Part shown: positions 3,931 through 12,476 of the stretch, in pieces
Layout of the letters: every line of letters begins with the position of its first letter
Numbering within the stretch: position 1 is the first letter of the stretch
IMG/VR virus record: IMGVR_UViG_3300009484_000148
Span: 1-20,203 of that record
Reading direction: 5' to 3' (one strand)
Length of the DNA stretch: 20,203 bases
From: a virus
Notes under the pieces: generated by a model
Databases searched by the model: none
What the model was told of the DNA's origin: nothing
The model's input: only the letters and a program-made list of their open reading frames with translations
Translations under genes and position numbers: made by a program

Positions 3931-6606
3931 ATGTCGGCTGCTCTGATCAATATTCACTCTGGAAAACAAACAGAATTTATTAGATCAACAGCAGACCGTT
4001 TATTTTTTGGTGGAGCAAGGGGCGGGTCGAAAGGACAACCCCTGGATTCAATTATATACACTCCCTTCGGTCAAATAAAGATGGGTGAAGTAAAGGTCGG
4101 TCAAAAAGTATGTACTCCGAATGGAAGAAACGCAAATGTCATTGGAATATTCCCTTTGGGAGAAAAAGATATTTATGAAGTAACCATGCAGGACGGCGGT
4201 AAAACAAGAGTCACGGAAGATCATCTTTGGAAATATAGTATATCTTGTCACAACTGGAGAAAATCAAAAGTTGATTGGAAACTTGCACTAACAAGCCAGA
4301 TAATTGAAATGATGGAATCTGGCAAAAGAATAATGCTTCCGGTTACAATGCCGGTTCAATTTACAAAATCATACAAATGTGATATGAGACCGCTTCATCC
4401 ATATTTTTTAGGATTACTTCTTGGTGATGGGTGTATGACTGGAACTGCAAGAGTTGGATTAACTACCGGAGATAAACAAATAAAAGAATGGATATCTGAA
4501 AATTATGATGTTGCAAATATTCTAAAAGTTAAAAACCAATACGAAATCAAATTTGATAATTCTGGTCTTACCGAAACTGCTTTAAAAAAAATGGATTTAA
4601 TCGGAAAATATTCCGACACTAAATTTATACCTAAAAGTTATCTTTGGGCTCCTGTAGTGGACAGATGGGAATTGCTTCAAGGTTTAATGGATACCGATGG
4701 TCACGCCACATCGGATGGTAAGGCATATTATACATCTGTGTCTAAGCAATTAGCCGAAAATGTAAGATTTTTAGTAAAAAGTTTAGGCGGAAGATGCACG
4801 ATGACGGTAAATCCGGCGGGATATAAAAAAGATGGCGTATATATTGAATGCAAGGATGCCTATGGTCTTTATATTAGGATGAGAGATAATAGTAAATTAT
4901 TTAAGCTTAACCGCAAAATAAACAAAGGTGGATTAAATAACGGCGGGAATGGTGAACTGAAAAACAAAATAGTTTCCATAGTAAAAGTTGGCAAAGAACA
5001 AGCACAATGTATTAAACTTGATAGTGTTGAAAGTCTGTATTTAACTGATGATTTTATAGTAACACACAATACTTTCGGTGGATGTTATAAAGCAGCATAT
5101 CAGGCCAGAACTTATCACTACGAAGATGCAGAAGGTGAAAAGATAGACAGAAAGAAATATTTGGGACAAATAAAAATGAACCTAAATCCTCGAATAATTG
5201 TTGATACAGTTTCGATCGACTATCCTGAATATAAAGCTTTAATTATCAGAAGAACTTTCCCGGACCTCGAAATTAACGTAAGACCTGAATGTGATAAATT
5301 ATATTTGAAGGATGCTCATGGAAATCCTTTTGCCTATTGGCTTGATAAAAAGAAATGCTATGTTTTTCCCTCTGGAGCAAAAATTTTCCTCGTGCATTGT
5401 AGAGACAGAAATGCTTTAACAAAGTATATCGGTGGTAATAACCATTTTGTATTTATCGATGAAGCAAATCAATTTCCTTGGGAATGGGTCGAAGATATCG
5501 GTTCAAGTGTAAGATCGTCAAATCCATTATTAAAAGCTCAAATGATATTAACGTCTAACCCTGGGGGTATCGGACACTATTGGCTGAAATCAAGGTTTGT
5601 TGATAACTGCCCTCCAGTGGAATTGGGTAAGAAAATTTTCTACAAAGAATTCAATGTTTCAATCCAACCTTACGCAACGGCCCCTTCCTATATCGATCCA
5701 GATGGTGTTGAATGGCAATTTATTCCGGCAACTGTATTTGACAATCCAAGCCTTTTAGCAAATCCAAATTATGTTAATGTTCTGAAAAACATAACAAATC
5801 CTGTCAAAAGAGCAATGTGGCTCGAAGGACGTTGGGATGCTGCACCTGGATTATTCTTTGATAATTTTATTTATGATGATGCTCATGTTTTACAGCAAAA
5901 AGATTTTATTTTTGATAGAGATTTTTCAACCAATACACACAACTTTTATAGATTTATAGATTATGGTACCAAGAACGCGACGGCTGTATTATTCGCGGCT
6001 GTAAATAAGAAAACTGCAAAAATGGTAATATTCGACGAATTGATTATGCGCCAAGGAAATCTCGTTAAAGATGAATTTGATTTCGATTTTGATGTTTCAA
6101 GCGCACCTTCAGTACAAGCAAGAATGATATTGGCCTATACAAAATCGCGACACCCTTATTTACATGAAGCAGATTTTGAGGAAAATATTGCAGACTCAGC
6201 AATGTGGCAAAAAACATCCGAAAAGAATAACGAACTTTATAGTCCTGCTGAATTATTTGAAGAGGCTGGTTTAGAATTAACTTCTTGCGGTAAAAAAGAA
6301 AGAGTTAATGAAGCAGCAATAGTTTATAACAGTTTTGTTCCTTTAGAAGATGGAATTCCAAGAACACAGATCACAGAGAATTGTCTTTATTTAATAGAAA
6401 CAATTCAATCTGCAGACCAGAATCCAAATAACATTGATGATCTCGACACTCAGGGAGAAGATCATGCTATTGACGCTCTCAAATATGGTTCAAAATATGT
6501 TTTTGGAACCGTTACAGAGCAACCAAAAAAAGAACCTGGCTGGAGAAATGAACTTAAAAATGAAATCAATGATCAGCAAAATGGTCACAGTTGGCGGGCG
6601 GCATGA
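3931..6606 (+). CDS. Terminase large subunit (TerL) precursor containing an intein
   Basis: TerL is the ATP-driven motor that cuts and packages phage DNA into the prohead through the portal. The 891-aa precursor is interrupted at residues 35-380 by an intein; the spliced protein would be 545 aa, a normal TerL size. Joining the exteins restores the Walker A motif GGARGGSK|TFGG. Walker B is FVFIDEAN with D510-E511. The C-terminal RNase-H-like nuclease begins with YRFIDYG (D677), with further acidic residues in IADSAMW and in the terminal GEDHAIDALKYG segment. The start at 3931 follows AAGGAAG. No small terminase gene is found beside it. The stop overlaps the next start as ATGA. Packaging should depend on splicing, because the unspliced precursor has a broken ATP site. 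Confidence 0.95.
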   Translation: MSAALINIHSGKQTEFIRSTADRLFFGGARGGSKGQPLDSIIYTPFGQIKMGEVKVGQKVCTPNGRNANVIGIFPLGEKDIYEVTMQDGGKTRVTEDHLWKYSISCHNWRKSKVDWKLALTSQIIEMMESGKRIMLPVTMPVQFTKSYKCDMRPLHPYFLGLLLGDGCMTGTARVGLTTGDKQIKEWISENYDVANILKVKNQYEIKFDNSGLTETALKKMDLIGKYSDTKFIPKSYLWAPVVDRWELLQGLMDTDGHATSDGKAYYTSVSKQLAENVRFLVKSLGGRCTMTVNPAGYKKDGVYIECKDAYGLYIRMRDNSKLFKLNRKINKGGLNNGGNGELKNKIVSIVKVGKEQAQCIKLDSVESLYLTDDFIVTHNTFGGCYKAAYQARTYHYEDAEGEKIDRKKYLGQIKMNLNPRIIVDTVSIDYPEYKALIIRRTFPDLEINVRPECDKLYLKDAHGNPFAYWLDKKKCYVFPSGAKIFLVHCRDRNALTKYIGGNNHFVFIDEANQFPWEWVEDIGSSVRSSNPLLKAQMILTSNPGGIGHYWLKSRFVDNCPPVELGKKIFYKEFNVSIQPYATAPSYIDPDGVEWQFIPATVFDNPSLLANPNYVNVLKNITNPVKRAMWLEGRWDAAPGLFFDNFIYDDAHVLQQKDFIFDRDFSTNTHNFYRFIDYGTKNATAVLFAAVNKKTAKMVIFDELIMRQGNLVKDEFDFDFDVSSAPSVQARMILAYTKSRHPYLHEADFEENIADSAMWQKTSEKNNELYSPAELFEEAGLELTSCGKKERVNEAAIVYNSFVPLEDGIPRTQITENCLYLIETIQSADQNPNNIDDLDTQGEDHAIDALKYGSKYVFGTVTEQPKKEPGWRNELKNEINDQQNGHSWRAA
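4033..5070 (+). mobile_element. In-frame class-3-type intein with LAGLIDADG homing endonuclease in TerL
   Basis: The 346-residue insertion (precursor residues 35-380) begins GQPLDSIIYTP and ends TDDFIVTHN before extein Thr381. It lacks the usual Cys1 or Ser1. Instead it shows the residues that define class 3 inteins: Trp in block B (DHLW, W100 of the precursor), Cys in block F (AQCIKLD, C360) and Thr in block G (VTHN, T378), followed by the terminal Asn380. Two LAGLIDADG motifs are present: FLGLLLGDG near 159-167 and LLQGLMDTDG at 248-257, with probable catalytic D166 and D256. The endonuclease would cut intein-free terL genes to spread the element. The exact boundary is inferred: starting at Gly35 restores the conserved P-loop Lys-Thr pair, while starting at Gln36 would leave an extra Gly between them. 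Confidence 0.9.
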
Positions 6607-7091
6607 GAGAAAAAATAGTACCAATAACAAATTATGAAAATTTTTATGCTATTAGTAATTATGGTTATGTGATTAGCTACCATCATAAAAAACAACATAT
6701 ATTAAAACCAATGAAGAATAAGGGTGGATATTTGTTTGTACAATTATCACATAAAAGTGATTGGAAAAATTTCCAATTGCATGCACTTGTTTGGGATCAC
6801 TTCGGAAATGAACAGAGGAATGGACATCAATTAGAAGTGGATCATATTGATGGAAATAAACTAAACAATCATATAAATAATCTACAAATTTTATCTGCCA
6901 GGCAAAATTCAGTAAAATATCGGGAAACACAAAAAACATCGAGTAAATATATTGGCGTGTGTAGGGATAAAAGAAGAGAAACATGGTATTCGAGAATTAG
7001 GCATAATGGAAAACAAATATATTTAGGTAGTTACAAAAACGAATATGACGCGTATTTAGCTTACCAAAAAGCACTGAAGGTGATAGTATGA
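6603..7091 (+). CDS. HNH homing endonuclease with NUMOD4 and AP2 domains
   Basis: The 162-aa protein has three parts: an N-terminal NUMOD4-like segment (NYENFYAISNYGYVIS, about 10-25), an HNH_3 nuclease core (H60 in QLHALVWDHF, then VDHIDGNKLNNHINNLQ at 79-95 with D80, H81 and N93), and a C-terminal AP2-type DNA-binding domain (SSKYIGVCRDKRRETW to LAYQKAL, about 113-158). This is a free-standing homing endonuclease, a selfish gene that nicks or cuts a target in related phages that lack it. The start at 6603 is preferred to an in-frame ATG at 6591 because it overlaps the terL stop as ATGA; no strong ribosome site precedes it, so translation is probably coupled to terL. Its stop overlaps the portal start in the same way. 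Confidence 0.9.
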   Translation: MREKIVPITNYENFYAISNYGYVISYHHKKQHILKPMKNKGGYLFVQLSHKSDWKNFQLHALVWDHFGNEQRNGHQLEVDHIDGNKLNNHINNLQILSARQNSVKYRETQKTSSKYIGVCRDKRRETWYSRIRHNGKQIYLGSYKNEYDAYLAYQKALKVIV

Positions 7092-8980
7092 ATTATGCAA
7101 AAATGGAATATGATCCAAGAATAGAAAAAGTTTTAAGGCTAAAAGATTATAGTGCTTCAGCTTTTAATGATGCAAGAAAATCTTCCGAAAAGGTTATGAG
7201 ATATTTGAACAATACCCAATGGACTGATGCTGATATTGCTCAATGCAAAAAACTCAAAAAACCATATCTTACTTATAATATTATTGTTCCAATTTTTGCC
7301 GCCTTGAAAGGTCACGAAGAACTAATGAGGCGCAGACCTAAAATAAAACCTATTAACAACAAAGAAAGCCATATTTCACAGATTTTACAGGGCAGATATA
7401 ATGCCTTAATGAATGAACAGGATTATGTAGAAAAAAGACTTTTAGTCTTTATTGACGCTCTGGCTACAAGGATGGGTGGATGGATTCAAAGAGACGTTGC
7501 CGTTAATGAGTTAGGATATCTTGATTTCCATTATTCTGTACCGAACAATATGAGAATTTATATTGATCCTGAAACGATGGCTTATGATCTTTCGGATTGC
7601 CAATGGATTATTAAGGAAGCATGGTATTCTCTTGAAGAAATTCAGGATAAATGGGGAATAGATAAAAACCTCGTTTATAAAGATGCAGATTTAAAATGGT
7701 GGGATAAAGTTGTTGATAGTATAAAAAAAATGACTTCTTCTTCATACAGTAATGAAGATCATTTTGATAAGCAAAACGATAAGTACCGCGTCTATGAAAT
7801 GCAGGAAAGAATTATTCATCCATGCTATATTCTTTTCAATGGTAGCGATTATGCCTATGTTTTTAAAGATGAATATGAAAAATCAAAAGAACTTTATGCG
7901 GATTATGAGATAATCATGTCCGATACAAAACGAAGATTAAAGATTACTACAATTTGTCCATATTTTGAAAAGGTAGTTTTACAGGATAGTTTTAGTCCTT
8001 TGCCTACAAGTAATTTTGATGTTTTTCCAGCATGGGCCTTTAACTATAATATTCAAAAATCAGAAACAACCTGTCTTGGTGAAATGCTGATTGATCCACA
8101 AGATGATTTCAATGTTGGGATGTCTCAAATTAGAGAATTTGTAACGCAGTCAATTAGCTCTGCCTTATATGTCCCAAGGGATAAAGCCCTGAGCCAGCAA
8201 ATAAAAGAACATGGAAACACCGCCGGTAATGTTTATGATGTTAAATCAAAAGATCATGCACCTTTTAGACTTCCTCCAGAAAATATGCAGCAGGAAATTT
8301 TTAGCTCACCAAATAATTCGGTTAATTTTATTGGTATTATTTCAGGCGTTCAAGATGCAATTTTAGGTAGAGAAGGAAAATCTTCTGAGTCCGGAGCATT
8401 AAGAGAAAAGAAATTACAACAGGCAACTGCTTCTGTTAATGACTTTTTCCACAATATTTGGCTAATGGATTTATTGATAGCAAAAGACTTTGTTGATTTA
8501 TTCCCTTATGTTTACAGTGAAAGAGATAGATTAATTAGAATTAAACAGGCAAATGGACAATTCGAGGAACAAATTATAAATCTTGAACTTGGAGGACAAA
8601 TCCTCAATAATGTTGAAAACCTTTCTATGTATGTTGAAATAGATGAAGGCGAAGATAGTGTTTCGGTTCAAGAGGATTCATTTGAAAAATGGTTAGCCCT
8701 GGCAAACGTAATAGCTCAAATCAATCCAGCTTTTGTAGATGTTAAGGGATTAGTAGCTGAAGCACCTATACCAAATGTGGACTCATGGATTGCTCATATT
8801 GATAAAGTTTTACAAGAAGAAGGTGTTGATTCAGATAGAGCTAAAAATTTAGCAGAAATTAAAATGCAGTTAGAAAATCTTAAAATCGAAAGAGATATGA
8901 TAACGGACGCTGAAAAAGTTAAGATCGAAGCCAAAAAAGCACAAAAAGAAAATAGTAAGCCTATGGCTAAGGCGAGTTAA
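7088..8980 (+). CDS. Portal protein, P22 gp1-like
   Basis: The 630-aa protein has the features of the P22-type portal family: an N-terminal region with a WTDADIAQCKKLKKPYLTYN segment followed by GHEELMRRRPKIKPIN, a YIDPE motif in the wing region, the SGALREKKLQQATASVNDFF helix region in the second half, and a long charged C-terminal helix with many Glu and Lys. Twelve copies form the channel at one capsid vertex through which TerL drives DNA and to which the tail connects. Its size is between compact siphovirus portals and the 725-aa P22 protein. The start at 7088 follows AAGGTGA, which lies within the end of the HNH gene, and overlaps that gene's stop (ATGA). Confidence 0.85.
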   Translation: MNYAKMEYDPRIEKVLRLKDYSASAFNDARKSSEKVMRYLNNTQWTDADIAQCKKLKKPYLTYNIIVPIFAALKGHEELMRRRPKIKPINNKESHISQILQGRYNALMNEQDYVEKRLLVFIDALATRMGGWIQRDVAVNELGYLDFHYSVPNNMRIYIDPETMAYDLSDCQWIIKEAWYSLEEIQDKWGIDKNLVYKDADLKWWDKVVDSIKKMTSSSYSNEDHFDKQNDKYRVYEMQERIIHPCYILFNGSDYAYVFKDEYEKSKELYADYEIIMSDTKRRLKITTICPYFEKVVLQDSFSPLPTSNFDVFPAWAFNYNIQKSETTCLGEMLIDPQDDFNVGMSQIREFVTQSISSALYVPRDKALSQQIKEHGNTAGNVYDVKSKDHAPFRLPPENMQQEIFSSPNNSVNFIGIISGVQDAILGREGKSSESGALREKKLQQATASVNDFFHNIWLMDLLIAKDFVDLFPYVYSERDRLIRIKQANGQFEEQIINLELGGQILNNVENLSMYVEIDEGEDSVSVQEDSFEKWLALANVIAQINPAFVDVKGLVAEAPIPNVDSWIAHIDKVLQEEGVDSDRAKNLAEIKMQLENLKIERDMITDAEKVKIEAKKAQKENSKPMAKAS

Positions 8981-11699: not shown

Positions 11700-11724
11700 A
11701 CTAACTTAGCCGATGTTATGGCTG

Positions 11725-11768
11725 ACAGGGGAGGTTGGATTGACCCTCCGCTCCCTCCCCTGTTTTTT
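11725..11768 (+). terminator. Intrinsic terminator after the capsid module
   Basis: ACAGGGGAGG at 11725-11734 and CCTCCCCTGT at 11754-11763 form a perfect 10-bp, GC-rich inverted repeat with a 19-nt loop. A run of six T (11763-11768) begins at the last paired base. This is a textbook rho-independent terminator. It ends the scaffold-capsid-decoration message and separates it from the radical SAM gene, whose start lies 10 bp further on. Since no clear promoter follows, downstream genes probably depend on partial read-through or antitermination. Confidence 0.9.
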
Positions 11769-11777
11769 AGGAATGAA

Positions 11778-12476
11778 ATGATACAAAGAATGGTTTTGTC
11801 GATCAAGACGATAGCTGCCTGTCAAAACAGATGCAGCTTTTGTCCTGTTATACCTTGGATGGAAGAACTAAAAGGTTTTGAAACAAGTCTGGACGATATT
11901 AAAAACTTAGTTTATTATAGTGTAGCAGCCGGATATCATTTCAAAAGGATAATATTTTCTGGAGGGGAACCGCTCTTATGGAAACATTTAAAAACAGCAG
12001 CAAATATAATTAATCTTTCCGGAATAACTCAGAGCCTATATTTTTATACAAATGCTTTAAAGGTAGATAAAGATTACCTTCCAGAATTCAGAGTAATATG
12101 CAGCTTATTCGATAAAGCTGTAGTTTCTCAATATGATAATAACGAAGAAAATGTTAAGCTTATAAAGTCTTCAGGAATACCAAATATTATAGTAATGAAC
12201 AGAGAAAAATATTATATCACTCCCAAAAATCCTATTCCAGATTCATTGCCGGCAGATTGTGGATGTCAAGCTTTCGGGATGGTTGGAAATAAAATTACAC
12301 TTTGCTCTTTCCAGGATCACATGATATCATATCAAAATTGGAATAGAAATAAATTTCAAGATCAAGAAGTAGAAATTGGGGAAAATTTCCTCAGTAAATT
12401 TGAAAACGTAAATCCTTTTATCAGAGAAATGTGTGCTTATTGCATTGGTAATATAAAGGTTAAAAATGAATTATGA
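11778..12476 (+). CDS. Radical SAM enzyme with extra C-terminal cysteines
   Basis: The 232-aa protein has the radical SAM CxxxCxxC cluster (C15, C19, C22 in ACQNRCSFC) that binds the 4Fe-4S/S-adenosylmethionine centre, followed by the SGGEP motif at 61-65. The C-terminal part has more cysteines, CGC at 161-163, C176 and CAYC at 219-222, a SPASM/twitch-like set that may hold an auxiliary iron-sulfur cluster. Such enzymes modify sugars, peptides or nucleosides by radical chemistry. The substrate is unknown. An upstream in-frame ATG at 11718 was rejected because those codons lie inside the terminator; TAGGA at 11768-11772 supports the start at 11778. The gene overlaps the acyltransferase by 11 bp, so the two are probably coupled. 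It is not a viperin or QueE, judging by the cysteine pattern. Confidence 0.85.

What the first reader, a model, noticed from the sequence alone, without database searches (positions are those of the whole stretch)
4033..5070. Class 3 intein without Cys1 splits the TerL P-loop between Lys and Thr
The insertion starts with Gly (or Gln) and carries the Trp/Cys/Thr set of class 3 inteins, which splice by first using the block F cysteine. It interrupts the ATP-binding loop itself, so packaging is impossible until splicing. Class 3 inteins are thought to have a phage origin, and this one keeps both LAGLIDADG motifs, so it may still be mobile. A Gly1 or Gln1 start is worth recording.
Basis: partly seen in the sequence, partly recalled or inferred. 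Interest (0 to 1): 0.6.

Follow-up and report, generated by a model that had tools for sequence, protein, structure and literature searches.

The report
Class 3 intein in phage terminase

Summary
ORF 3931-6606 is a terminase large subunit (TerL) interrupted by a 346-residue in-frame intein at exactly 4033-5070. Three intein-free relatives (73-75% identical) align without a gap across the joined flanks (GGARGGSK|TFGG), so the boundary is Lys|Gly...Asn|Thr. Residue 1 is Gly; Gln1 is excluded. The class 3 signature is complete: no N-terminal nucleophile, Trp66 (B:12), Cys326 (F:4), Thr344 (G:5), plus His64, His345, Asn346 and Thr+1. Both LAGLIDADG motifs keep their acidic residues. AlphaFold gives a confident two-domain model (pLDDT 94) matching class 3 DnaB inteins and PI-SceI. 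A related intein sits at the same site in L003, whose flank is 95.8% identical over 5.27 kb to intein-free L004, starting at the splice point: recent gain or loss. But this is a known kind. 1701 class 3 inteins were counted by 2020, and the P-loop Lys|Thr site is the published 'classic' TerL1-a site. Gly1 is a minority state: 8 of 171 other inteins with a readable position 1; Ala dominates. One small point: A1G abolished splicing in the class 3 AceL NrdHF intein, yet natural Gly1 recurs. Splicing and endonuclease activity are inferred, not shown.

The parts
3931..4032 (+). N-extein of TerL (34 aa), ending in the P-loop GGARGGSK
   Evidence: Translation; aligns without gap at the junction to intein-free L001/L002/L004
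4033..5070 (+). Class 3 intein, 346 aa, Gly1 to Asn346, with LAGLIDADG endonuclease domain
4222..4230 (+). Block B: His64 (B:10), Leu65, Trp66 (B:12, W of WCT)
   Evidence: Alignment
4426..4428 (+). Asp132 in first LAGLIDADG motif (LGLLLGDG)
   Evidence: Conserved in 160 of 173 relatives
4696..4698 (+). Asp222 in second LAGLIDADG motif (GLMDTDG)
   Evidence: Conserved in 169 of 173 relatives; PF14528 hit
5008..5010 (+). Cys326 (F:4; precursor Cys360), predicted first nucleophile
   Evidence: Conserved in 172 of 173 relatives
5062..5070 (+). Block G: Thr344 (G:5), His345, Asn346 (precursor Asn380)
   Evidence: Invariant in 173 relatives
5071..6606 (+). C-extein of TerL (511 aa plus stop), starting with Thr+1; Walker B-like FVFIDEAN
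   Evidence: phrog_979 terminase large subunit, E 4e-30; 74-76% identity to TerL of L001-L005

Best explanation
The insert is a full-length, probably active class 3 intein with a LAGLIDADG homing endonuclease, inserted between the Lys and Thr of the Walker A loop of a phage TerL. Expected splicing (inferred from the family): Cys326, activated by His64 and Thr344, attacks the Lys-Gly1 bond and forms a branched thioester. Thr+1 takes over the N-extein by transesterification. Asn346 cyclises and releases the intein, and an O-N shift leaves ...GGSK-TFGG... . The endonuclease domain should cut intein-free terL alleles, so that repair copies the intein in. Shown here: anatomy, exact boundary, complete residue set, confident predicted fold, and presence/absence in close relatives. 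Inferred: splicing, cutting and homing.
For: WCT, B:10 His, penultimate His, terminal Asn and Thr+1 all present, no Cys/Ser1. Full-length match to hundreds of phage inteins. Gapless empty site in three relatives. L003 (intein) and L004 (no intein) 95.8% identical over 5272 nt beginning at the C-terminal splice point. AlphaFold pLDDT 94.3; model matches 6bs8 'class 3 DnaB intein' (Z 20.0, 1.5 A over 123 residues), 6rix/6riy MchDnaB1 (Z 19.6) and PI-SceI (Z 27.3, 333 residues). Mechanism of the class: PMC7664689, PMC7891396, PMC3196547.
Against: No experiment. The block F position that is often His (334; in 75 of 173) is Ser here, although 98 of 173 relatives also lack His there. A1G abolished trans-splicing of the AceL NrdHF class 3 intein (PMC7891396), so Gly1 might slow this one. 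The Walker A residue before Lys is Ser rather than Gly in the intein-bearing allele.
Confidence: 0.93

Rival explanations
1. It is a decaying class 3 intein: the endonuclease or the splicing is already impaired and the element is only passively inherited.
For: Gly1 is uncommon and A1G was inactive in one class 3 intein (PMC7891396); Ser replaces the frequent block F His.
Against: Frame open over 346 codons, all catalytic and LAGLIDADG acidic residues kept, high-confidence full fold. TerL is essential for packaging, so a non-splicing intein here would kill the phage (inference). A related intein (66% identical over 244 residues) at the same site shows recent movement or loss.
Confidence: 0.05
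2. It splices by the class 2 route, with Thr+1 attacking the N-junction directly; Cys326 is not needed.
For: No nucleophile at residue 1, which class 2 also lacks.
Against: The WCT triplet is complete and the intein sits among inteins that carry it almost without exception; the best-matching mini-intein structures include the class 3 DnaB inteins. By the sequence rule used to classify inteins it is class 3 (PMC3196547, PMC7891396).
Confidence: 0.02

Closest known systems
TerL1-a inteins of mycobacteriophages (PMC5050341)
   Different: Other TerL family and other phages; the mycobacteriophage TerL inteins compared here are distant (about 25-29% identity); which of them is exactly TerL1-a was not verified
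Acinetobacter phage TaPaz TerL intein (L007)
   Same: Annotated intein-containing large terminase, K|T site, WCT, LAGLIDADG motifs, full-length match
   Different: 32.6% identity; Ala1 instead of Gly1
Class 3 DnaB inteins MsmDnaBi1 (6bs8) and MchDnaB1 (6rix, 6riy)
   Same: Same HINT fold (1.5-2.0 A), class 3 by their depositors' titles or PMC7664689
   Different: Those are mini-inteins without endonuclease, in DnaB helicase
L003 intein (IMG/VR contig, same TerL lineage)
   Same: Same site, 66% identical over 244 shared residues, DFIVTHN|T end
   Different: Contig begins inside the intein, so its residue 1 is unknown

Membership tests
Class 3 intein | No Cys/Ser nucleophile at residue 1 | tested here: met
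   Gly1, boundary fixed by three intein-free relatives
Class 3 intein | Trp at B:12, Cys at F:4, Thr at G:5 (WCT) | tested here: met
   Trp66, Cys326, Thr344 aligned with 173 inteins
Class 3 intein | Block B His, penultimate His, terminal Asn, Cys/Ser/Thr at +1 | tested here: met
   His64, His345, Asn346, Thr+1
Class 3 intein | HINT fold | tested here: met
   AlphaFold model pLDDT 94.3, 6bs8 Z 20.0 at 1.5 A
Class 3 intein | Splicing through a block F Cys branched thioester | not testable with these tools
   Needs expression and C360A/N380A variants
LAGLIDADG homing endonuclease | Two LAGLIDADG motifs with acidic residues | tested here: met
   Asp132 and Asp222; PF14528; PI-SceI fold match
LAGLIDADG homing endonuclease | Cuts the intein-free allele | not testable with these tools
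   Only indirect: intein presence/absence between L003 and L004
Phage terminase large subunit | TerL family match, Walker A and Walker B, place beside the portal gene | tested here: met
   phrog_979; GGARGGSK|T and FVFIDEAN; P22-like portal at 7088-8980

The most novel reading that the evidence does not exclude
Natural Gly1 class 3 inteins, recurrent and mostly at TerL-like P-loops (7 of 9 including this one), have a compensated N-junction that does not need the strained Ala1 geometry proposed for AceL NrdHF, i.e. a distinct way to activate the N-scissile bond.
Probability: 0.12. Interest if true: 0.4.

Novelty: new member of a known kind. Interest (0 to 1): 0.2.

Why it matters
It adds one well-delimited class 3 intein from an uncultured phage lineage, with a near-identical pair of relatives (L003/L004) that differ by the intein. 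That pair could serve a homing test, and the Gly1 set could test whether residue 1 strain is needed for class 3 splicing. It does not change what is known about intein classes or sites.

Tried and rejected
Gln1 start: the extein would keep an extra Gly absent from all intein-free relatives. Class 1 reading: no Cys/Ser at residue 1. A single-sequence scan of viral contigs with the intein found no relative; the alignment-based scans did. An own-record search showed one copy only, and that the window is the whole 20203-base virus record. The structure tools do not return coordinates, so active-site distances were not measured. Tori and Perler 2011 (PMC3133030) is not held, so the residue-1 survey was made here. 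Pfam showed no terminase model on this TerL at E 0.01; PHROGs did.

Full report
What is there. ORF 3931-6606 on the + strand encodes 891 residues. Its outer parts are a phage terminase large subunit: phrog_979 at E 4e-30 and 74-76% identity over 511 residues to TerL of five IMG/VR contigs, L001-L005. The gene lies before a P22-like portal and a capsid gene. Residues 35-380 are an intein, encoded at 4033-5070.

Boundary. In L001, L002 and L004 the P-loop is uninterrupted: GGARGGGK followed directly by TWGG or TLGG. The window's joined flanks align to these three full TerLs with no gap at the junction, at 75.3, 74.0 and 72.7% identity. So the intein begins after Lys34 and ends before Thr+1. Gly1 is fixed and Gln1 is excluded, since Gln1 would leave an extra Gly in the P-loop.

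Class. Class 3 inteins are defined by lack of the residue-1 nucleophile plus Trp B:12, Cys F:4 and Thr G:5 (PMC3196547, PMC7891396). All are met, with His64, His345, Asn346 and Thr+1. In 173 other distinct inteins collected from phages, viral contigs and genomes, the three positions read W 168, C 172, T 173. These were gathered by similarity and by patterns that include VTH(N), so they show where the family is conserved, not an unbiased frequency. AlphaFold on a 68-row alignment gave mean pLDDT 94.3. The model matches PI-SceI over 333 residues (Z 27.3) and the class 3 DnaB inteins 6bs8 (Z 20.0, 1.5 A, 123 residues) and 6rix/6riy (Z 19.6). Class 1 gp41-1 scores nearly as well (Z 19.0), so the fold alone does not decide the class; the residues do.

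Residue 1. Among relatives with a readable position, Ala stands in 127, Ser in 10, Gly in 8, then Leu, Glu, Asp, Met and others. Gly1 occurs in L039, L052, L065, L068, L080, L119, L131 and L142. Their mutual identity is 30-42%, except L068/L080 (98%) and L119/L142 (63%), and the tree needs about seven changes (quick tree, weak deep support). Seven of the nine Gly1 inteins including this one sit at P-loops of the TerL type (.GG...G.K), judged by motif only. Gly1 is thus a recurrent minority state. It is mildly interesting because A1G abolished trans-splicing of the class 3 AceL NrdHF intein, explained there by a strained N-junction (PMC7891396).

Mobility. L003 carries a related intein (162 of 244 shared residues identical) at the same site, and its downstream 5272 nt are 95.8% identical to L004, which has none; the matching stretch starts at the splice point. 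This is a presence/absence difference between close relatives. Gain or loss cannot be told apart, because L003's contig begins inside the intein. Asp132 and Asp222 of the two LAGLIDADG motifs are kept. Cutting activity is untested.

What is known. A 2020 survey counted 1701 class 3 inteins, 82.5% with LAGLIDADG motifs (PMC7891396). TerL is the commonest intein host in mycobacteriophages, and the Lys|Thr P-loop site is called 'classic' there; several TerL inteins were shown to splice and two to cut intein-free alleles (PMC5050341). [quoted passage not shown] A phage origin of class 3 inteins was proposed by Tori and Perler 2011 (cited; not read here). The finding is therefore a new member of a known kind. 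Splicing here is inferred from the family.

Verdict. Observation confirmed, interpretation supported, novelty low.

Noticed in passing
window 6591-7091 (+): A free-standing HNH endonuclease gene with NUMOD4, HNH_3 and (below cut-off) AP2 domains, homing type, lower G+C (0.30 against 0.35), overlaps the terL stop and separates terL from the portal gene; it is absent from all five close relatives L001-L005, so a second homing element has entered next to the intein-bearing gene.
   Followed up: partly
L005:3961-4000: The intein-free terL of L005 has two extra codons with an in-frame TGA (GGARGG*GGKTYGG) right beside the intein insertion site; no other TGA in the rest of the gene. Could be a sequencing error, a broken gene or a scar at the homing site; L005 and intein-bearing L003 bear the same metagenome number.
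   Followed up: partly
window 11718-12476 (+): A radical SAM protein gene (PF04055) sits shortly behind the capsid gene, followed by a hexapeptide-transferase-like gene and a weak glycosyltransferase match; unusual company in a structural operon.
   Followed up: no
window 4024-4032: The intein-bearing allele has Ser before the P-loop Lys (GGSK), where the intein-free relatives have Gly (GGGK); Ala or Ser also occur there in some other intein-bearing TerL-type loops.
   Followed up: no
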